Positions 36,443 to 46,396 of a stretch of 64,000 bases of DNA are shown piece after piece. The notes below the pieces were generated by a model. The model was not told the DNA's origin. It ran no database searches and saw nothing but the letters and a program-made list of their open reading frames with translations. Made by a program: the position numbers and the translations under genes. The stretch comes from Cetobacterium sp. 8H (GTDB taxonomy: Bacteria > Fusobacteriota > Fusobacteriia > Fusobacteriales > Fusobacteriaceae), in NCBI RefSeq assembly GCF_014250675.1, contig NZ_JACHTG010000004.1:1489501-1553500 (forward strand), written 5' to 3'. Within the stretch, counting starts at the first letter, position 1. Each line of letters starts with the position of its first letter.

Positions 36443-36474
36443 TTGAAAAATTATATTTTAAGTGTTAATATAAT
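36443..36474 (+). promoter_or_regulatory. promoter of the TonB receptor operon
   Basis: TTGAAA is followed after 17 bp by TAATAT (or after 20 bp by TATAAT), just upstream of the cobalamin riboswitch. Confidence 0.55.
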
Positions 36475-36496
36475 ATATTGTGTAAGAAAAAAGAAG

Positions 36497-36623
36497 TTTT
36501 AATATGGAAATATGGTTGAATCCCATTACGGCCCCGCCACTGTAAAATTGACGAAAGCACGAAATCTCACTGAGGAAACTTGGGAAGAGGTGTAAGTAGG
36601 ATGAGATGAGTCAGGATACTTTT
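36497..36623 (+). ncRNA. cobalamin riboswitch upstream of the TonB receptor
   Basis: The core blocks GGTTGAATCCC, GCCCCGCCACTGT, GGGAAG, AAGTAGGATGA and the B12 box GAGTCAGGATAC are in the right order. No intrinsic terminator lies between the B12 box and the ATG at 36649, and the SD (GAGGGAGG) follows within 20 bases, so control is probably at translation initiation. It predicts that the receptor is made when cobalamin is scarce. Confidence 0.9.
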
Positions 36624-36648
36624 AAAACATAACTTCGAGGGAGGAAAA

Positions 36649-38694
36649 ATGAACAAAAGAGCATTAATATTTTTATCATTGGTTTCTTTTTTAACTACGT
36701 ATTCAATAACAGAAAAGAATTCAATAAAATTAGAGGACAGTGTGGTGTCAACAGAAAATTTTGAAACAACAGTGAGAGACACACCATCAAATGTAAGTAT
36801 TGTAACTTCAAATGAGATTCAAGAGAGTGGAGCTAAGGATTTAGTAGATGTTTTAAGAACAGTTCCAGGAATAAGAGTTACAAGATATGCAGGGACAATA
36901 AAGTTTGATATAAGAGGATTAAATTCTATGTATAGTGATAGAAACTCGTTGATAACTTTAGATGGGGTTCCAGTATCAGCTAGTCAAATATCAAACTTAC
37001 CTCTATCAATGATAGAAAGAATTGAGGTTATCCCAGGTGGTGGAAATATTTTATATGGGGATAAAGCAATAGGTGGAGTTGTTAATGTACTTACAAAAAA
37101 TGTTGAAAATGAAAAAAATTATGGAACAGTTTTTAGTGAATATGGAAGTTATACTAGTAGAAAACTAGGATTTAACTACGGAACAAAAATAACAAATAAA
37201 TTTTTAGCAGAGATAGGTTATATAAAAAACGATAATAATGGTTGGAGAGATCATGAAGATTTTAGAAACAGTTCTTTAAATTTTAAAGGGAAATATCTTT
37301 TAGAAAATGGAGATATTGAATATAAATATACATATAATGAGGATAAAAATTTAGCAGGAGTGGCTGTTCCAAGATATGTATCTGAAAATGATAGAAAAGA
37401 TCCAGGTAAAATATCAGGATCTAAATACCGTTCTAATGACAACTATTTAAAATATATTAAGCATTTATCAGATAAAACAGAAGTTTTATTATTTGGAAAC
37501 TATTATGAAATAGAAAATGATAATTATAGTAGAAAGAATGGAAGTAACTATTACGGAACTTTTAAAAGAGATGGTGATGACGAAAGAAAATATCTAAAAG
37601 CTCAATTAAAACATAACTATTCAGATGAAAATTACTTTATTTTAGGAATGGACTATTTAGATGAAGCATTTAAACCATATTCTGTTGGGAATACTTATAA
37701 TTCATCTGTCAGTGGAGTTGGTCCTAACGGGAATATAGTAACAGCAGGAAAAAATATTGAAACTGGTGATTCAAGTAAAGAGAACATAGGATTATTCTTA
37801 ACAAATAAATATCAATATGAGAAAATACAGTTTAGACAGGGTGTTAGATATGATAGAGCTAAGTATGATTTTTATTGGAGAAATGGAAAATTAAACAGTT
37901 GGGAAAAAATAGGAACTCGAGACGATGCTGAATATGAAAATCTTTCATATGAATTAAGTGCAAATTATTTATACTCAGAAACTGGTTCAACATACCTATC
38001 ATATAATAGAGCTTTTAGAACACCTACAGCTTCTGAAATGAGGTATACAAAAAATTCTGAGAAATTGCATTCTCAGATTCAGGATACTATAGAAGTTGGA
38101 GTAAAAGATTTTTTAAACGATACTTATATTTCAACATCAGCCTTTTATAAAAAAACTTATGATGAGATTTATTCAGCAATCCCACCAGAATTTTCAGGTA
38201 TGGTAAACTACAATATTGGAACTACTGAAAGAGTAGGTTTTGAAGGAGTCATGGAGCATTATATAGATAAGTTAACTTTAAAATCATCAGTAACATATAT
38301 AAAAGCTAAAATAATAGATGGAGAATATTCAGGATCTGAAATTCCAAGTGTACCTAATTGGAAGTTGACTGCAGGCTTGAAGTATGATTTAACAGAAAAG
38401 ATTTCAATAAGTGGAGATGTACTTTATTACAGTAGTTCTTATGACTTGGATGACTTAAGTAATGAGAGAGAAAAAAATTCTGGCGAGTATGTAACTGTAG
38501 ATCTATCAGCATACTATAAATTAACAACTGATTTTATGTTAACTGCTAGAATAGAGAATCTATTTGATAAGAAATATGATGAGTATGCAGGATATTGGGA
38601 TGACACTTATGAAAATGGTCAAAGTATTGAGAGAAGACAATATTATCCAGCTATTGGAAGGACGATTACAGTTGGAGCAACATACACTTTTTAA
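36649..38694 (+). CDS. TonB-dependent outer-membrane receptor, probable cobalamin/cobinamide uptake (BtuB-like)
   Basis: A 681-residue receptor with a signal peptide (about residues 1-20), an unusually N-terminal TonB-box-like region, a plug domain (NVSIVTSNEIQESGAKDLVDVLRTVPG... IERIEVIPGGGNILYGDKAIGGVVNVLT, residues about 45-165) and a 22-strand-type barrel. The last residues are alternating and end in Phe (TVGATYTF), the BAM signal. A cobalamin riboswitch directly upstream indicates a corrinoid substrate. This suits the cell's need for adenosylcobalamin in KamDE. No BtuCDF genes are in the window. Confidence 0.9.
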   Translation: MNKRALIFLSLVSFLTTYSITEKNSIKLEDSVVSTENFETTVRDTPSNVSIVTSNEIQESGAKDLVDVLRTVPGIRVTRYAGTIKFDIRGLNSMYSDRNSLITLDGVPVSASQISNLPLSMIERIEVIPGGGNILYGDKAIGGVVNVLTKNVENEKNYGTVFSEYGSYTSRKLGFNYGTKITNKFLAEIGYIKNDNNGWRDHEDFRNSSLNFKGKYLLENGDIEYKYTYNEDKNLAGVAVPRYVSENDRKDPGKISGSKYRSNDNYLKYIKHLSDKTEVLLFGNYYEIENDNYSRKNGSNYYGTFKRDGDDERKYLKAQLKHNYSDENYFILGMDYLDEAFKPYSVGNTYNSSVSGVGPNGNIVTAGKNIETGDSSKENIGLFLTNKYQYEKIQFRQGVRYDRAKYDFYWRNGKLNSWEKIGTRDDAEYENLSYELSANYLYSETGSTYLSYNRAFRTPTASEMRYTKNSEKLHSQIQDTIEVGVKDFLNDTYISTSAFYKKTYDEIYSAIPPEFSGMVNYNIGTTERVGFEGVMEHYIDKLTLKSSVTYIKAKIIDGEYSGSEIPSVPNWKLTAGLKYDLTEKISISGDVLYYSSSYDLDDLSNEREKNSGEYVTVDLSAYYKLTTDFMLTARIENLFDKKYDEYAGYWDDTYENGQSIERRQYYPAIGRTITVGATYTF

Positions 38695-38709: not shown

Positions 38710-39240
38710 GTGATTAAGTTGAGAAAGATATTAGATAAAGCATATGAAGATATAAATAGATTAAATTTAAAAAAAAGATGTAATCAATTTTCTAATTTAA
38801 ATGGATGTTGCAAATGGGATTATTCACTTATATCTTCTGAAGAAGAGTCTGAAATTAGTGATTTTTTAGAAAAAAATATTGAAATTTATGAAAAAGTAAT
38901 TGAAAATAAAAAAAATGAAAGCACTTGCTATTTTCATGATAAAATAAATAAAAAGTGTTTGATAGAAAAAGTAAGACCAATTTGTTGCAGATATATATCT
39001 TATAAAATTTATGAAAAAGAGGATTGTTTTAAAAGTTGTTCTCCGACAAATCCATGTCAAAAAGAAAAATCTACAGTTATTTCAGTCTCAAAAGAAGATG
39101 TGTATGTAGAAAGTGAGTATATAAAATATATAATTTTAAATAATGAAAAAATCTATTTTATAGATGATAAATCTATTCCAGAGTATGTGGAATATAAAAA
39201 AAATCAAAATATTAAGTTAAGTAAAGTTATAAATAAGTAA
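38710..39240 (+). CDS. Cys-rich protein, YkgJ-like, cotranscribed with the TonB receptor
   Basis: A 176-residue cytoplasmic protein with at least 11 Cys: CNQF..GCCKWD near the N-terminus, then CYFHD, KKCLIEKVRPICCRYI and ENCF/CSPTNPC-like groups. The spacing recalls the YkgJ/CxxCxxCC zinc- or iron-binding family, though the match is loose. It starts with GTG 15 bp after the receptor (SD GAGGAG overlapping the receptor stop), so it belongs to the B12-riboswitch operon. A role in metal or corrinoid handling is inference. No signal peptide. Confidence 0.7.
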   Translation: MIKLRKILDKAYEDINRLNLKKRCNQFSNLNGCCKWDYSLISSEEESEISDFLEKNIEIYEKVIENKKNESTCYFHDKINKKCLIEKVRPICCRYISYKIYEKEDCFKSCSPTNPCQKEKSTVISVSKEDVYVESEYIKYIILNNEKIYFIDDKSIPEYVEYKKNQNIKLSKVINK

Positions 39241-39241
39241 T

Positions 39242-39278
39242 AAAAAAACTGCAGATATGGGAGTCTGCAGTTTTTTTA
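39242..39278. terminator. terminator after the TonB receptor operon
   Basis: AAAAAAACTGCAGA pairs with TCTGCAGTTTTTTT around an 8-base loop; the symmetric tails let it stop transcription from either side. Confidence 0.85.
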
Positions 39279-39330
39279 ATTTGTTTGTTTGTTTTTGTTT
39301 TTTATGAGGAAAATTATTAGTGTTTTGGTA

Positions 39331-39386
39331 AATAAAAAAATCTAATAAAAATTAAAAGAAAATAACCCCTTTTAGTTTTTATTAGA
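39331..39386 (-). terminator. terminator of the orphan cobalamin-riboswitch transcript
   Basis: On the minus strand TCTAATAAAAACTAAAAG pairs with CTTTTAATTTTTATTAGA (one mismatch) and is followed by TTTTTTTATT. It closes the riboswitch transcript about 100 bases after the B12 box, before any gene. Confidence 0.75.
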
Positions 39387-39395
39387 AATTTATAT

Positions 39396-39431
39396 TTTAA
39401 TATTAATTATGCATATATAATTAATATTAAA
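39396..39431. repeat. perfect A/T inverted repeat
   Basis: TTTAATATTAATTAT and ATAATTAATATTAAA are exact 15-bp arms around a 6-base loop, between the riboswitch and its terminator. A second 10-bp stem (TTTATTTTTC/GAAAAATAAA, 39441-39466) adjoins it. In RNA both would be stable parts of the orphan transcript. Confidence 0.7.
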
Positions 39432-39480
39432 TATGATTCCTTTATTTTTCTCCCGTGAAAAATAAAAACTAAATTTTAAA

Positions 39481-39620
39481 TAAGTCTCCTGACTTAGCTT
39501 CATCCTACCTCTAACCCTTCCCAGATTTCTCCAGTGGTTGCTAGTTTCGTCCACAATACAGTAGCTTGGGGCTGCGTGGGATTCACACCCACATTCCTTT
39601 ATTAAGCCTTTCGGCATTTA
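39481..39620 (-). ncRNA. orphan cobalamin riboswitch on the minus strand
   Basis: On the minus strand the consensus blocks appear in order: GCCGAAAGGC hairpin, GGGTGTGAATCCC, GCAGCCCCAAGCTACTGT, CCACTGG, CTGGGAAGG, GGTAGGATGAAG and the B12 box AAGTCAGGAGACTT. No gene follows: two A/T hairpins and an intrinsic terminator come next, then the convergent terminator of the TonB operon. The 484-bp gap therefore appears to hold a self-contained cobalamin-responsive RNA of about 290 bases. Confidence 0.85.
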
Positions 39621-39634
39621 AAATATCTAGTATT

Positions 39635-39664
39635 AAAATAACATATTTATACCTATTTTGTCAA
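39635..39664 (-). promoter_or_regulatory. promoter of the orphan riboswitch RNA
   Basis: On the minus strand TTGACA (39664-39659) is followed after 17-18 bp by TTATTT/TATTTT, a moderate -10, a short distance before the aptamer. Confidence 0.55.
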
Positions 39665-39678
39665 CAAATATATTAAAT

Positions 39679-39722
39679 AAAAAAAGTATACCTAAATATA
39701 TTAATTTAGTTATACTTTTTGA
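39679..39722 (-). terminator. terminator after the hypothetical gene at 39725
   Basis: AAAAAGTATA and CTAAAT on one side pair with ATTTAG and TATACTTTTT on the other; A/T tails on both sides. It insulates the orphan riboswitch RNA from the gene upstream of it. Confidence 0.75.
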
Positions 39723-39724
39723 AT

Positions 39725-40096
39725 TTATTTATTAAAAAATATATACTCTAAAGAGATCGGAGTGTTATCCTTTCCACATATAACTTTAAAAGTACCTAAA
39801 AAATTTAATTTTGGATTAGTTTTGAATCCGAAATCAAGAGGAGGTCTAGTTCCACAAAATTCATTATAATAAGGATTTATAAAAGTGATATGAAAATAAC
39901 GATTTCCATCTTCATCTTCACTACCTTTAGACAAAAAATTAGAATATTTTACCCCAGGAACAGACTGAAAAGATATAGTGATGTTAGTTTTATTATTAGG
40001 AAGACTGATTTGGATAATGCTATCATTATTTAAATCTTGGATAAGATTTTGCTCAATAACATTTAAAGATTTACTACCGCTTAAAAAAAAGTTCAT
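39725..40096 (-). CDS. hypothetical protein
   Basis: A 123-residue protein without signal peptide or membrane segment. The sequence alternates polar and hydrophobic residues in a beta-rich way (IIQISLPNNKTNITISFQSVPGVKYSNF, then RYFHITFINPYYNEFCG). It has two Cys and no motif I recognise. RBS GGAGGCA precedes the ATG, and a terminator follows the stop, so it is probably a real monocistronic gene. Function unknown. Confidence 0.6.
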   Translation of the reverse strand: MNFFLSGSKSLNVIEQNLIQDLNNDSIIQISLPNNKTNITISFQSVPGVKYSNFLSKGSEDEDGNRYFHITFINPYYNEFCGTRPPLDFGFKTNPKLNFLGTFKVICGKDNTPISLEYIFFNK

Positions 40097-40254
40097 AAAA
40101 TGCCTCCTATAATTTAAAATCTATAAATATATAGATATTAATATATTATACTATATTTTTAATAAAAATGGAAAAGTTTGTTGAAACATTTATTTACAAA
40201 AGAAAATTTTAGAGATAGAATAGAATAAAAAAATAAGGTTAAAGGAGAAAAAAT

Positions 40255-41052: not shown

Positions 41053-41129
41053 ATAAAGAAGGAGAATATTGAGTCTTCTTCAAGGTTTATGTAAACTCTA
41101 AAAATTAGAGTGATAATTTATATTTTTTA

Positions 41130-41155
41130 GGGATGGTTTTTTAAAAAGCCATCCC
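41130..41155 (+). terminator. hairpin after the small charged protein
   Basis: GGGATGG and CCATCCC flank TTTTTTAAAAAG, which itself can pair, giving a very long stem. The following tail is only moderately T-rich, so termination is likely but not certain. Confidence 0.55.
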
Positions 41156-41191
41156 ATAAAATTTTGTTTTAAAGACCCTGTTTCTTTTCAT

Positions 41192-41241
41192 AAAAAAACC
41201 TCCAAGTCAGATAATTTAATATTACCTCAACTTGAAGGTTT
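41192..41241 (-). terminator. terminator after the beta-propeller/PHP gene
   Basis: On the minus strand AAACCTTCAAGT pairs with ACTTGGAGGTTT (one wobble) and a run of T's follows. Confidence 0.7.
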
Positions 41242-41251
41242 ACACAAATTT

Positions 41252-43492
41252 TTAATCTCTACTTTTTATCCAAATCGGACTTCCCCAAGCTTGGTGCTCA
41301 TCTTTTTGTGTAACTCTTACATAATAAAAATCTTCTCTTTCTTCAACTTTTCTAGTAAAAGTAAAGTCACAAGACCTGTTAGTAGACTCTTTTTTTATTA
41401 TAACTTCATTATTACAAAGCACTTCAACGCTCAGTTCATCTGTTCCTAATACACTTATATTAAATTCAACTTGACTACCTATTTCTTTTTCAATAATTGT
41501 GCCCATTTCATGGTTATCAGCTTTAAAAGATAATAAAATGCCAGCTCCAGATGTTCCATAAGCAAAACGATCATATAGATTATCCCAAACTGTTTCATTA
41601 GCTAATTTATCTACAAAGGAGATTATTATTCCTCCCTCTAAACCATGTTCCATTTGGTGAGAATCACTTCCTGCAATAAATCCTAAATGATATCCTTTTG
41701 CCAAAGCATCTTGAGCACTACAACGCTCAATCTGCATATTGTTTTTAGTATATTTAGAATGATTTCCATAATATTCAAAAGGAGCATGTCTTGAGAAGAT
41801 TTCTACCATTCTTTGTACACTATCATCATGGAATGACCAATCAGTTGCCGCACTTACCAATTTCCAACTAGCTGCTGGATGATGTGGAAAAGCCATAGCT
41901 TTATATTTTTTTATACTAGTAAATAGATGATCTGGAGTTAAACCACCTTCATCTCCTGAACGAAATAACTCTCCTTCAAAGCCTCTATAGTATATATTCT
42001 TATGCCCAAAGTCATAACGATACTCATTCGGTGTCCATTCATAAGCTAAAAGTGTTGCCATTTTTCCGTCTACATTAAACAGTCTCGAAGTTGTACGAAT
42101 CCATTCCCACTCTGACTCACTTAACCAATACGGATAACAGTCATGATCTGTTAATGCAGTAAAATCTAGATTTGCCCACACTTTTGCGATATTGAAGAAT
42201 TGATCAATCTCTCCAACTCCATCGGACATTCCACTTTGACCATGAATATCTCCAAACACTGGGAATTTTTTACCATATCCATTTTTAATCATCCACTCTT
42301 TAGTTTCGCTCTCACTTATACGATCTAGCGATTTTTCTGCTGGAATTGGACGAGTAAATGGATCGCTCACTTTTTCAGCTTCTATATCAATATAGTTTTC
42401 AAATTCATCAGCTTTTAACCATGTATAAATAACTTGTGCATTTCTAATTGGTTTATGACCATTTTCATTTCCGTATTGCCATACTAAATGAATTGTTCCC
42501 TCTTCATCTATAAGTGCTCTTTGATTAGCTGCAAAACTATTTTCATCATAAGTAAAAACAACAGGTTCACTCCACTTATTTGTATAGTCATAGTGTCTCA
42601 CATGAAGTTTTGTTTTTCCCCAAGAGTAAGAAAAAGCCACCTCTCCCTTAGAGTTTTCTGCAATTGCAATATCTTCATACCAATCAATTCCACTTCCAAT
42701 ACAATAAGGTTCTTCTACAACTAATTCGCTATCCTTTAGAAAAACTACTGAACTATTATATGAAAAATCAGACCCATGATTAAAATCATACCAACATACT
42801 AAAACTTTATCTTTCAGCGAAGCAACTAAAGGTTGAGCTGCCCAAGCAGTTTTTGAGGTGCTAACAACTTTTTCATCAGACCAAATACCATCCTTATAAG
42901 CTCTAACTAAAACATCATAATTTTTACCATTGAAAGAATCATAGGCTACATATCCAATCCCATCATCTGTTATTGTATAACTTGGTCTATAAACTTCTTT
43001 TGAAGACGAAACAACCTGAAGATTTTCTATTCCATTTTCTCCAATCATTCCCATTACAACTTCTGCTGAGTTACTATGCTGACGATTCCAAAGAAGGTAT
43101 ACCACTCCATTTTTAGAGTATATATAAGGATAGAAAAGAGCTTCTCCTTCTTCTGCACACTGAATTTTTCCATAAACTCCATTTTCATAACTTCTATAAT
43201 AAATTCCCCATTTTTTATTTCTATTTTCTCCCCAAGCATACCAAACACGGTTTCCATCTGCTATACAAACAGGTTTTAATGCTTCTCCATCTTGAGATAT
43301 AACAACACCACTTACAAATTTATCTTTTTCTTGAGTTAAAACTCCAGCTACAATAACATCATGTCTATCTTTATATTCTTGATAACAAACATAAGTTTGT
43401 CCATCAGCAGTTTGAGTCATACATGGATATTTTCCACTAACTGCAACAATGTCTGTAACCTCTTTTGAGTACTTTTGATTTAATTTATTCAT
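41252..43492 (-). CDS. beta-propeller protein with C-terminal PHP/DUF3604-type metallohydrolase domain
   Basis: A 746-residue protein in two parts. Residues about 1-375 hold repeated short beta-strand units (VWYAWGENRNKKWGIYYRSYENG, VYLLWNRQHSNSAEVVMG, AYDSFNGKNYDVLVRAYKDG), a BNR/sialidase-like propeller. Residues about 400-746 look like a PHP metal-dependent phosphoesterase: FGDIHGQSGMSDG near 412, ALTDHD near 443, PHHPAASW and AGSDSHQ near 607. These His/Asp sets match DUF3604. No signal peptide is visible. It is the last gene of the operon with the GPH transporter and Crp/Fnr regulator, all behind a guanine-type riboswitch. The substrate is unknown. Confidence 0.75.
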   Translation of the reverse strand: MNKLNQKYSKEVTDIVAVSGKYPCMTQTADGQTYVCYQEYKDRHDVIVAGVLTQEKDKFVSGVVISQDGEALKPVCIADGNRVWYAWGENRNKKWGIYYRSYENGVYGKIQCAEEGEALFYPYIYSKNGVVYLLWNRQHSNSAEVVMGMIGENGIENLQVVSSSKEVYRPSYTITDDGIGYVAYDSFNGKNYDVLVRAYKDGIWSDEKVVSTSKTAWAAQPLVASLKDKVLVCWYDFNHGSDFSYNSSVVFLKDSELVVEEPYCIGSGIDWYEDIAIAENSKGEVAFSYSWGKTKLHVRHYDYTNKWSEPVVFTYDENSFAANQRALIDEEGTIHLVWQYGNENGHKPIRNAQVIYTWLKADEFENYIDIEAEKVSDPFTRPIPAEKSLDRISESETKEWMIKNGYGKKFPVFGDIHGQSGMSDGVGEIDQFFNIAKVWANLDFTALTDHDCYPYWLSESEWEWIRTTSRLFNVDGKMATLLAYEWTPNEYRYDFGHKNIYYRGFEGELFRSGDEGGLTPDHLFTSIKKYKAMAFPHHPAASWKLVSAATDWSFHDDSVQRMVEIFSRHAPFEYYGNHSKYTKNNMQIERCSAQDALAKGYHLGFIAGSDSHQMEHGLEGGIIISFVDKLANETVWDNLYDRFAYGTSGAGILLSFKADNHEMGTIIEKEIGSQVEFNISVLGTDELSVEVLCNNEVIIKKESTNRSCDFTFTRKVEEREDFYYVRVTQKDEHQAWGSPIWIKSRD

Positions 43493-43516
43493 TTTATTCC
43501 TCCGTATTTTACTTTG

Positions 43517-44950
43517 TTATGCAATGTTTCTTCTTTTTTCTAGTTCTTTTGAAATATCTTTTGTTTTTTCTGGGGTTATTTCATAAAAATATAACACAAC
43601 TGCCACTAAAACAAAAAGTATTGCAGGTATAATAAAACGTAGTGAAATAATCATGTTAAGAGAACTTTCAACTTGATCTTTATTAGCCACAAATCCTGCT
43701 ATTCCAAGCAAGAAACTTGATAAAAATCCACCAATAGCTATCCCGCATTTTTGTACAAATGTAAATGTTGCAGTGAATAATCCATTTGGCTGCACTCCAT
43801 ACTTCCATTCTGCATAATCTATACAATCTGGTATCATAGCCCAAGGTAATGCACTTGCTATTCCATACATAAAACCAAATAAAATTAATTGAGCAAGAAG
43901 CGAATATATTGAAGTTACATTAGGATTTAACCCCAATAAAATTAAAGGAATCACACAAATAAGAGTTGAATATATAAATGCTTTTTTCTTTCCAAAAATA
44001 CCTTCAATTTTTGGCAAAATCATTGATGCAAGAATACTTGCTCCCATACTAACTGCCATAACTGTTGGAATCCAATTTTGCTTATTTAAAATATATTTAA
44101 AATAGTACATATTTGCTGAATTTACAAGAGTGTTTGCAAACATTGATAGTCCAAAAGCTACTACAAGAACTAAAAGTGGTCTTGTTTTTAAAAGAATTTT
44201 AAAATTGTTTTCTGATTTTCTTTCCTTACTGCTATTTTTTAATTCTTCTGTATTATTAGAGATATCATGAGCTTTAGCTCCATCTGCTGCAATCCATACA
44301 AAAATAGTTGCAGCTCCTCCAACAATTGCTCCAAAGGTTGCCCATCCTTTTTGTCCGCCACCAAACATATTTACCATAGGTAATGCAAAAGTTGAGATAC
44401 ATAATACCGCTACCTGACACATTACACTTTTCCAAGAGATAATAATTGTTCTGGTATGTGAATCTTTAGAAATAACTGGTACTAATGCGAAATATGGTAT
44501 TGAAACAATTGTTATAGCTATTGAATAAAATATAAATACTCCGTAAGCATATATAACCTTCATGCTCTCTGGAATATTTGGTGTATAAAAAAGTAAAAAT
44601 ACAGCAAATCCAAGTACAGGCGCAAAAAATATCATCCAAGGTCTAAATTTTCCCCAACGAGATCTTGTTCTATCTGCTCCCATTCCCATAATGGGGTCTG
44701 TTATAGCATCTACAATTCTTGAAACTAGCATTATTCCTGCCACAGCAAAGGTTGTGATTCCAAAAATATCTGTTAAAAAAAAGTTTAAATACGACATAGT
44801 TAAATTTGTTGCAAGCGTTACCCCTAATCCTCCTAAAGAATACTTAAAAATATCCACCAGTATATTTTTATTTTTAGCCTTTCCTGTTTCAGGCTTTGAT
44901 GAATACCTAGGAATATCTAGTGATATCTCTCCGCTTCTTAATTCCTTCAT
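43517..44950 (-). CDS. GPH-family (MelB/XynB-like) MFS cation symporter
   Basis: A 477-residue, 12-span transporter of the glycoside-pentoside-hexuronide:cation symporter family. The hallmark TM2-3 loop SRIVDAITDPIMGMGADRTRSRWGKFRPW is complete, including the cation-site Asp residues of TM2. These symporters usually move sugars or glycosides. It lies between the Crp/Fnr gene and the PHP-domain gene, so it probably imports the substrate of that hydrolase. Control by a guanine-type riboswitch raises the possibility of a nucleoside or purine conjugate as substrate. RBS GGGAGG. Confidence 0.88.
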   Translation of the reverse strand: MKELRSGEISLDIPRYSSKPETGKAKNKNILVDIFKYSLGGLGVTLATNLTMSYLNFFLTDIFGITTFAVAGIMLVSRIVDAITDPIMGMGADRTRSRWGKFRPWMIFFAPVLGFAVFLLFYTPNIPESMKVIYAYGVFIFYSIAITIVSIPYFALVPVISKDSHTRTIIISWKSVMCQVAVLCISTFALPMVNMFGGGQKGWATFGAIVGGAATIFVWIAADGAKAHDISNNTEELKNSSKERKSENNFKILLKTRPLLVLVVAFGLSMFANTLVNSANMYYFKYILNKQNWIPTVMAVSMGASILASMILPKIEGIFGKKKAFIYSTLICVIPLILLGLNPNVTSIYSLLAQLILFGFMYGIASALPWAMIPDCIDYAEWKYGVQPNGLFTATFTFVQKCGIAIGGFLSSFLLGIAGFVANKDQVESSLNMIISLRFIIPAILFVLVAVVLYFYEITPEKTKDISKELEKRRNIA

Positions 44951-44968
44951 TTAATCCTCCCGTTGAAT

Positions 44969-45679
44969 TTATAATATATTTTTAATTTTTTCTATCTGTA
45001 GATTATTTATAACTATGTTTCCCTTTTCTGTGACAATTAGTGTCTCTTCTTTTAACTCTCTTAATATACGATAAAAAGTTCTAGTACTTATTCCTATATT
45101 ATCCATAATGTAGTCATTTTTTAATCTAATAATTAATTTATCTTCACCTTTATGATTGTTTCTCCAATAATCATTTAACCAGCACAAAAATTGTAATTTT
45201 GCATCATTAATTAACATATACTCTGCACGGCTTGATGTTAAAGACATTTTCTTTAATAAATTTTTTATAATATACAATGACATTTCTGAGTTTTTTTCAA
45301 GACATTCTATAAAATATTCTTTTTCAATATCTATTACTATGCATTTTTCTGTTACATAGTCTTCCGTCATATTTGCATTTTCTTTGTCTAAAACTCTATC
45401 CATTCCAATCCATTCAGGAGCTTCATTTAAAGCTATCAAGTTTCTTTTTCCTATCTTTAGTTCTCGATAATGAAAATATTTTCCAACAATTACATAATGG
45501 ATATATTTTTGTGTTTTATCATATTGATGTATTTTTTCCCCTTCTTTTACAACTCTTATTTGCATATGCTCATTAAGGTGATCTTTTATTAATTTCAAAT
45601 CAGGGTTTGTTTTCCATTTTTCCTCTCTTGTTATATAAATAATCTTAAATAAATTATTACATTTTTCCATATTTGACAT
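44969..45679 (-). CDS. Crp/Fnr-family transcriptional regulator
   Basis: A 236-residue regulator with an N-terminal cyclic-nucleotide-binding-like barrel (residues about 35-135) and a C-terminal winged helix containing NDYIMDNIGISTRTFYRILRELKEETLI. There is no N-terminal Cys cluster of FNR, so it is probably not an iron-sulfur oxygen sensor. The ATG at 45679 sits only 2 bases after GGGGAG; the ATG at 45670 is 11 bases from it, so the true start is uncertain. It is the first gene after the guanine riboswitch and terminator and probably regulates the transporter and hydrolase genes downstream. Confidence 0.82.
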   Translation of the reverse strand: MSNMEKCNNLFKIIYITREEKWKTNPDLKLIKDHLNEHMQIRVVKEGEKIHQYDKTQKYIHYVIVGKYFHYRELKIGKRNLIALNEAPEWIGMDRVLDKENANMTEDYVTEKCIVIDIEKEYFIECLEKNSEMSLYIIKNLLKKMSLTSSRAEYMLINDAKLQFLCWLNDYWRNNHKGEDKLIIRLKNDYIMDNIGISTRTFYRILRELKEETLIVTEKGNIVINNLQIEKIKNIL

Positions 45680-45822
45680 TACTCCCCTTTTTTATGCCAT
45701 ATACTCTAAATATTTTTTATTTACATATTTATATTAAATTTATTTAATACTAATATATTTTTATAAAAAATTCTATGTCACATAGCACAATTTTCTAAAA
45801 TTTTATATTTTTCCTTATAAAT

Positions 45823-45857
45823 AAAAAAAGTCTTTTCTCTATTACAAGAAAAGACTT
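45823..45857 (-). terminator. expression-platform terminator of the purine riboswitch
   Basis: On the minus strand AAGTCTTTTCT pairs with AGAAAAGACTT and a T run follows. Its 5' arm GTCTTTTCTT can pair with GAGAAGAGAC, the 3' strand of aptamer helix P1 and beyond, in ten base pairs including two wobbles. This is the layout of a ligand-OFF switch. Confidence 0.75.
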
Positions 45858-45908
45858 CAATAAATTGAATGAAAATACAAAAATATACTTCAAATATATG
45901 TATGTCTC

Positions 45909-45975
45909 TTCTCATAGGAACCTATTTACGGCAGGTCGTAGAGACATTCATCCATATTATGAATATATATGAGAA
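45909..45975 (-). ncRNA. purine riboswitch, guanine class
   Basis: On the minus strand: P1 TTCTCATA pairs with TATGAGAA; P2 ATTCAT/ATGAAT has the AATATGG loop; J2/3 reads TCTCTAC; P3 ACCT/AGGT has the CCGTAAA loop that kisses L2. The base before the closing UAUG (position 74 in xpt numbering) is C, and positions 47 and 51 are U, which gives guanine/hypoxanthine recognition. Position 48 is C instead of U, a flipped-out base known to vary. The 366-bp gap is otherwise the terminator and leader of the Crp/Fnr gene. Confidence 0.85.
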
Positions 45976-46045
45976 AATTTTTATGTTATTTATTTTAATA
46001 GTATCATTTTTTTACAATTTTGTAAACTTTAATACATATTAATTC

Positions 46046-46396
46046 CTATTTTTGATTTTTACAAAACTCTTTATAATCTCTTAAAATATCGCTATAACTT
46101 CGAGCAACATATGCGATAAGAGTTCCATCATCTAACCACCCAAGACCTGGAATAACGTCAGATACGGCATCTACAGGTGAAACAACATAGATGATAGCCC
46201 CTGTCAAAATAAGAATATATTTTTTTTCGAGTTTATATTTTTTATTTTTAGTATCTTTAATTAAGTTAACAATCAAAAGTAAATCATCAGCATGTGCACC
46301 TAAATTCATAGCTTTTTTAATAGCACTAGTTAAATCTTGGGTACTTAATTTTCTACCTTGAAATTTTTTAAAAAATTTTAGAATTATTTTATTCAT
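46046..46396 (-). CDS. YkvA-like DUF1232 membrane protein
   Basis: A 116-residue protein of the DUF1232 (YkvA) family. The conserved segment YVVSPVDAVSDVIPGLGWLDDGTLIAYVA (residues about 70-98) is complete and preceded by a hydrophobic stretch (YILILTGAI). Function is not known for the family. It lies 70 bp before the purine aptamer on the same strand, with no clear terminator between, so its transcript might run into the riboswitch. Confidence 0.82.
   Translation of the reverse strand: MNKIILKFFKKFQGRKLSTQDLTSAIKKAMNLGAHADDLLLIVNLIKDTKNKKYKLEKKYILILTGAIIYVVSPVDAVSDVIPGLGWLDDGTLIAYVARSYSDILRDYKEFCKNQK

What the first reader, a model, noticed from the sequence alone, without database searches (positions are those of the whole stretch)
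39331..39664. Orphan cobalamin riboswitch that seems to make only a short, terminated RNA
On the minus strand a complete cobalamin aptamer (39481-39620) has its own promoter, but no coding sequence follows. Instead there are two exact A/T stems and an intrinsic terminator at 39331-39386, and beyond that the convergent terminator of the TonB operon. A B12-dependent RNA of about 290 bases is predicted, facing a receptor operon that has its own B12 riboswitch. Known parallels are B12-riboswitch-controlled regulatory RNAs in Listeria and Enterococcus (antisense to pocR; the eut regulator-sequestering RNA). It might act in trans, act as antisense if termination fails, or be the remains of a lost gene.
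Basis: partly seen in the sequence, partly recalled or inferred. Interest (0 to 1): 0.75.

Follow-up and report, generated by a model that had tools for sequence, protein, structure and literature searches.

The report
Cobalamin riboswitch with no gene
This is a complete vitamin B12 switch in the DNA of a Cetobacterium (a genus common in fish guts) that controls no gene; closely related switches in sister species sit directly in front of nutrient-receptor genes, so it is probably the left-over control leader of a lost gene, although its moving parts are all still intact.

Summary
The minus strand at 39636-39462 carries a full RF00174 aptamer (73.5 bits, E 3e-16) with a good promoter, a conserved antiterminator/terminator pair and no gene behind it; a second, bidirectional terminator closes the locus. 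The genus is Cetobacterium. The same leader (80-82% identical through aptamer and terminator) sits directly in front of TonB-receptor genes in four sister species, and in front of an Opp/Nik-type importer in this same genome. The syntenic sister genome has a 65-bp junction with no riboswitch. I read it as a 'solo' leader whose gene was lost or never came along: the fastest-evolving member of its clade, yet all 13 antiterminator, 11 terminator and 10 hairpin pairs are kept. An EutX/Rli55-type RNA was tested (the genome has EutV and its target hairpins) and not met. Cis-antisense action is weakly supported. The wider search gave a second gene-less cobalamin riboswitch, conserved in five Cetobacterium genomes between an M18 aminopeptidase gene and a FabK-like gene, whose relatives in a sister genus precede TonB receptors. 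Gene-less B12 riboswitches thus recur, and at least one has been kept for long.

The parts
39635..39664 (-). promoter TTGACA-18-TGT-TATTTT (extended -10)
   Evidence: TTGACA conserved in all six O-type leaders
39462..39636 (-). cobalamin riboswitch aptamer (RF00174), O-type
   Evidence: 73.5 bits; clade placement
39461..39473 (-). antiterminator 5' strand UUUAGUUUUUAUU
   Evidence: pairs 13/13 with 39371-39383 in orphan and in five gene-bearing leaders
39371..39383 (-). antiterminator 3' strand AAUAAAAACUAAA, shared with terminator 5' arm
39441..39466 (-). hairpin H1, 10 pairs, hexaloop ACGGGA; competes with antiterminator
   Evidence: 10/10 pairs in all six leaders
39398..39429 (-). hairpin H2, 13 exact pairs, hexaloop AUAUGC; only in the orphan
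   Evidence: 13/13 in orphan, 6-8/13 in relatives
39334..39386 (-). intrinsic terminator of the riboswitch (11-pair basal stem, U7)
39241..39278 (.). bidirectional terminator closing the TonB operon (+) and any read-through from the orphan (-)
   Evidence: found on both strands
36468..36638 (+). second cobalamin riboswitch (T-type, SD GAGGGAGG right behind aptamer) of the TonB operon
   Evidence: alignment
36649..38694 (+). TonB-dependent receptor
   Evidence: Pfam PF00593 and PF07715; not at the cut-off of any curated BtuB model
38710..39240 (+). cysteine-rich 176-aa protein next to this receptor in relatives (no Pfam or NCBIfam match)
39725..40096 (-). 123-aa gene (p123) upstream of the orphan, right edge of the extra block

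Best explanation
A gene-less ('solo') copy of a Cetobacterium O-type cobalamin leader. Transcription starts near 39628. With cobalamin bound, P1 and H1 form and the terminator at 39334-39386 ends an RNA of about 295 nt. Without cobalamin, UUUAGUUUUUAUU pairs with AAUAAAAACUAAA, the terminator cannot form and RNA polymerase reads about 50 nt on, into the bidirectional terminator at 39241-39278. Neither RNA carries a gene. The leader most likely once served a gene of the kind its relatives still serve (TonB receptor or Opp/Nik-type importer) that was lost, or it arrived without it. Shown: parts, pairing, homologous gene-bearing leaders, empty site in the sister genome. Inferred: transcription, ligand response, gene loss as the direction of events, and absence of a present function.
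For: Full-length homologs with terminator lie directly ahead of TonB-receptor genes in G008, G002, G006, G003 and ahead of an Opp/Nik-type permease at G000:C5. Homology stops at the U-run: relatives have a Shine-Dalgarno sequence and start codon some 20-60 nt on, the orphan has none. The syntenic Cetobacterium MAG (L076 = G010:C2) has TonB, the cysteine-rich gene and p123 in the same order with a 65-bp junction and no riboswitch. The aptamer is the longest branch of the O clade (0.12 against 0.006-0.046) and the leader has 22 private changes against 0-5 in others, as expected after release from a gene. A parallel: the M18-locus solo riboswitch is a TonB-type leader without its gene.
Against: The switch is not decayed: antiterminator 13/13, terminator 11/11, H1 10/10 pairs, and only 1 of 23 private platform changes lies in the 54 stem positions (hypergeometric P 7e-5; linker changes may not be independent, and part of the branch may predate gene loss). 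No remnant of a coding sequence was found. A new perfect hairpin H2 is not what decay usually makes. The other solo riboswitch has been kept across five species.
Confidence: 0.6

Rival explanations
1. A working B12-responsive small RNA that acts in trans: the 295-nt (B12 bound) or 385-nt (B12 free) RNA binds an RNA or protein, for example by its A/U hairpins or by its antiterminator strand, which could pair with the like platform of the G000:C5 importer leader.
For: Promoter, aptamer and complete switch kept; substitutions avoid stems; private perfect hairpin H2; a gene-less cobalamin riboswitch elsewhere in the genus is conserved in five genomes, aptamer 79% identical G006-G009 against 54-62% for adjoining spacers.
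Against: No ortholog of this solo copy in any of 11 other Cetobacterium genomes; long branch; no target identified.
Confidence: 0.2
2. An antisense-acting riboswitch: without cobalamin, read-through transcription interferes with or pairs with the 3' end of the convergent TonB operon, as the SAM riboswitch at ubiG-mccBA and the Listeria cobalamin riboswitch at pocR do.
For: Convergent layout at the 3' end of a gene set linked to the same ligand; 190 cobalamin riboswitches are catalogued as antisense-acting (PMC9943018).
Against: A bidirectional terminator lies between orphan and the last gene on both strands, so antisense RNA would end at the stop codon. The sign is wrong: low B12 should raise, not lower, uptake. 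The sister species runs the same operon without it.
Confidence: 0.12
3. An EutX/Rli55-type sponge that sequesters the antiterminator protein EutV depending on B12.
For: Genome has a eut operon with EutV and a textbook dual hairpin ahead of eutA (C-AAGGGT-G, C-AAAGAA-G); orphan H1 has C-ACGGGA-G; a review notes that EutX could lie anywhere in a genome (PMC5821096).
Against: Second hexaloop is AUAUGC, without the G at position 4 that both loops need (PMC3369931). H1 belongs to the ordinary platform, with loop GUGGGG or similar in gene-bearing relatives. The site lies before, not after, the terminator.
Confidence: 0.03
4. Assembly or sampling artefact (chimeric junction).
For: Block absent from the one syntenic relative.
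Against: It lies inside a 1.75-Mb contig with continuous synteny on both sides, and differs by about 20% from every other copy, so it is not a misplaced read.
Confidence: 0.02

Closest known systems
Cobalamin riboswitch RF00174 with transcription-terminating platform (TonB-receptor leaders of Cetobacterium)
   Same: Same aptamer clade, promoter layout, antiterminator and terminator; 80-82% identical
   Different: No Shine-Dalgarno sequence, start codon or gene behind the terminator
EutX / Rli55 (Enterococcus, Listeria)
   Same: Gene-less RNA with a cobalamin aptamer; eutV present in the genome
   Different: No ANTAR dual hairpin (one loop only), hairpins before the terminator, far from eut
Antisense-acting riboswitches (Listeria pocR cobalamin; Clostridium acetobutylicum ubiG-mccBA SAM; catalogue in PMC9943018)
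   Same: Riboswitch faces the 3' end of a gene set linked to its ligand
   Different: Bidirectional terminator stands between; regulatory sign does not fit; absent in the sister species
M18-locus solo cobalamin riboswitch of Cetobacterium (found here)
   Same: Gene-less cobalamin riboswitch at a convergent gene end; relatives precede TonB receptors
   Different: Other aptamer type, translational (SD) platform with an 8-9 codon frame, conserved in five genomes

Membership tests
Cobalamin riboswitch (RF00174) | Full-length aptamer above gathering score | tested here: met
   73.5 bits against 31.5, positions 1-189 of 189
Cobalamin riboswitch (RF00174) | Expression platform with mutually exclusive structures | tested here: met
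   Antiterminator 13/13 and terminator 11/11 share one arm, as in five gene-bearing leaders
Cobalamin riboswitch (RF00174) | Controls a downstream gene in cis | tested here: not met
   No gene on the minus strand; second terminator 50 nt on. The aptamer family itself is defined by sequence and structure, so it is still an RF00174 member
Cobalamin riboswitch (RF00174) | Binds cobalamin | not testable with these tools
   needs in-line probing or a reporter
EutX / Rli55 sponge RNA | Dual hairpin with A1 and G4 in both hexaloops | tested here: not met
   H1 ACGGGA fits, H2 AUAUGC does not; no AnnGnn pair of hairpins in the RNA
EutX / Rli55 sponge RNA | ANTAR regulator EutV in the genome | tested here: met
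   one ANTAR protein inside a eut operon
Antisense-acting riboswitch | Riboswitch at the 3' end of, and opposite to, a gene linked to its ligand | tested here: met
   convergent to the TonB operon with its own B12 riboswitch
Antisense-acting riboswitch | Transcript extends into the opposing gene when not terminated | tested here: inconclusive
   bidirectional terminator 39241-39278 predicted to stop it; needs RNA data
Relic of a lost gene's leader | Homologous leaders with a gene directly behind | tested here: met
   four Cetobacterium genomes plus G000:C5
Relic of a lost gene's leader | Structural decay or coding remnant | tested here: not met
   all platform pairs kept, no coding remnant; so a relic only if the loss is recent

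The most novel reading that the evidence does not exclude
Cetobacterium keeps gene-less cobalamin riboswitches as B12-sensing small RNAs: the window's terminator-type copy and, with far better support, the SD-type copy at the M18 aminopeptidase locus, which is conserved in five genomes with its Shine-Dalgarno sequence and an 8-9 codon frame, so that a riboswitch has outlived its TonB-receptor gene and been taken over as a regulatory RNA or a mini-peptide/antisense device.
Probability: 0.2. Interest if true: 0.75.

Novelty: new member of a known kind. Interest (0 to 1): 0.4.

Why it matters
Riboswitches are thought of as leaders of genes. A genus in which two different cobalamin leaders stand alone, one of them kept in five species, offers a way to ask whether a riboswitch can survive its gene and become a metabolite-sensing small RNA, the step that must have produced EutX/Rli55. 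Cetobacterium somerae is a reported B12 producer of fish guts (PMC10268390, title seen), so how the genus senses B12 has practical interest too.

Tried and rejected
EutX/Rli55: one of two loops fits, rejected. The M18 solo RNAs have no AnnGnn hairpin either. Inversion of the TonB segment between two facing riboswitches: no long inverted repeat beyond the shared aptamer motif itself (37 nt, 76%). Recent copy from G000:C5: only 80% identical, no closer than to other species. Coding in the 75-aa frame across the aptamer: no family match; read directly from the alignment, the frame is open because a private A-to-T change removed a stop that all relatives have. Lost TonB cassette moved from the glmS-NlpC locus: in G000, G010 and G001 that locus has no cassette, so it neither proves nor excludes it. 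Literature: no paper held with both Cetobacterium and cobalamin riboswitch.

Full report
What is there. On the minus strand of the window a full-length cobalamin riboswitch aptamer lies at 39636-39462 (RF00174, 73.5 bits, E 3e-16). A promoter TTGACA-18-TGT-TATTTT stands at 39664-39635. Behind the aptamer come hairpin H1 (39441-39466), a perfect A/U hairpin H2 (39398-39429) and a terminator stem with U7 (39334-39386). The 290-nt stretch folds at -70.1 kcal/mol, 4.7 standard deviations below shuffles. No gene follows; 50 nt further lies a terminator that works on paper in both directions (39241-39278) and closes the convergent TonB operon, which has its own cobalamin riboswitch at 36468-36638.

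Where it is. A relative of the neighbouring gene names the genus: an uncultured Cetobacterium MAG (L076, NZ_CAMTIK010000002.1) is collinear with the window. The window's genome G000 has six RF00174 matches.

Related leaders. A DNA search with the orphan finds full-length matches, terminator included, in G008, G002, G006 and G003 (80-82%), and a second copy in G000 itself at C5:110427-110739. In the four species the leader stands directly ahead of a TonB-receptor gene followed by the same cysteine-rich gene (for G008, G006, G003; for G002); at C5 it stands ahead of an Opp/Nik-type permease. The alignment runs unbroken through promoter, aptamer and terminator and ends at the U-run; the relatives then have a Shine-Dalgarno sequence and a start codon, the orphan nothing. 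A tree of aptamers separates these leaders from the T-type and M18-type ones (97/97), with the orphan on the longest end branch of the O group, 0.12; two BtuF-like leaders of G007 and G005 join the same group. More distant kin in another genus of the family lead exbB-exbD-type operons (ORFs recognised from sequence by eye).

How it would work. The strand UUUAGUUUUUAUU (39473-39461) just behind P1 pairs over 13 positions with AAUAAAAACUAAA (39383-39371), the 5' arm of the terminator. All 13 pairs, all 11 basal terminator pairs and all 10 H1 pairs are kept in the orphan and in the five gene-bearing leaders, and both states fold with comparable computed stabilities in all six. So B12 should favour P1, H1 and the terminator (RNA of about 295 nt), and its absence the antiterminator (about 385 nt, ending at the bidirectional terminator). 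This is inference from anatomy; binding and transcription were not tested. The simple terminator scanner did not flag the riboswitch terminator because it asks for three G-C pairs; the support is conservation.

Relic or function? For a relic: the gene is present in relatives and absent here; the collinear sister genome has a 65-bp junction with one terminator and no riboswitch; the orphan has 22 private changes in aptamer and platform where other leaders have 0-5. Against simple decay: of 23 private substitutions in the 140-nt platform only one lies in the 54 stem positions (P 7e-5), with the reservations that linker changes may be few events and that part of the branch may predate gene loss. 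Whether the sister lost the block or the window's lineage gained it cannot be told. The next gene, p123, and its flanks are 90-98% identical to the sister where neighbours are mostly 61-88%, so this junction has seen recent exchange.

Known systems. EutX/Rli55 is a cobalamin-riboswitch RNA that sequesters EutV, and a review points out that it could lie anywhere in a genome (PMC5821096). G000 has a eut operon with EutV and a clear dual hairpin ahead of eutA. The orphan's H1 fits the C-AnnGnn-G pattern (rule for A1 and G4: PMC3369931), H2 does not, and H1 is part of the ordinary platform. Membership not met. Antisense-acting riboswitches are a described kind with 190 cobalamin cases catalogued (PMC9943018); the layout fits, but a bidirectional terminator stands between, the sign is wrong and the sister lives without it.

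A second, conserved solo riboswitch. Checking what lies behind the RF00174 matches of the genus for which flanking DNA was fetched showed five more with no gene of 100 aa within 1500 nt, all at one locus: between a FabK-like gene and an M18 aminopeptidase gene in G002, G003, G006, G008 and G009. G000, G010 and G001 have a short junction there and no riboswitch. It ends in a Shine-Dalgarno sequence GAGGGAGGA and an 8-9 codon frame (for example MMKFWHFFP), then a hairpin and the M18 gene's terminator. Between G006 and G009 the aptamer is 79% identical, spacers 54-62%, M18 coding end 82%. In a sister genus (G012, G013) the same type of aptamer and Shine-Dalgarno platform stands ahead of a TonB receptor. 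This too looks like a receptor leader without its gene, but one that appears to be held by selection in five genomes; the peptide itself shows mostly amino-acid-changing differences, so translation of it is not established. It raises the prior that gene-less leaders can acquire a role, and is the better place to test it.

Verdict. The feature is real and ordinary in its parts; what is unusual is the missing gene. I hold a left-over, still intact leader as most likely (0.6), a working small RNA as the main rival (0.2).

Noticed in passing
L089:5700-6130 (+), L088, L091, L084, L092: Gene-less cobalamin riboswitch conserved in five Cetobacterium genomes between M18 aminopeptidase and FabK-like genes, with SD and an 8-9 codon frame (MMKFWHFFP and variants).
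   Followed up: partly
window 39722-40190: The 123-aa gene (weak DUF6864 match, below cut-off) and its flanks are 90-98% identical to the sister genome, neighbours mostly 61-88%; found in only two of 12 genomes: recent exchange.
   Followed up: partly
window 41071-46048: About 5 kb absent from the collinear sister genome: DUF3604-like protein, MFS_2 sugar-type transporter, Crp-like regulator and a purine riboswitch (45992-45895, -) about 215 nt ahead of the regulator gene, an unusual purine riboswitch target.
   Followed up: no
L119:11281-11321: Textbook ANTAR dual hairpin between eutW and eutA of a eut operon with EutV; no EutX-type RNA was found among this genome's six cobalamin riboswitches.
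   Followed up: partly
window 36330-36255 (-): c-di-GMP-I riboswitch ahead of a DUF4402-like secreted protein gene; kept in the sister genome.
   Followed up: no
L037:4928-5240 (G000:C5:110427-110739): O-type cobalamin riboswitch ahead of an Opp/Nik-type (nickel/cobalt-like) importer operon; TTG start behind AAGGAGG.
   Followed up: partly
window 39279-39300; L092; L089: (TTTG)n or (AAAC)n tracts just behind convergent terminators at both solo-riboswitch loci; may be a common tail of Cetobacterium terminators.
   Followed up: no
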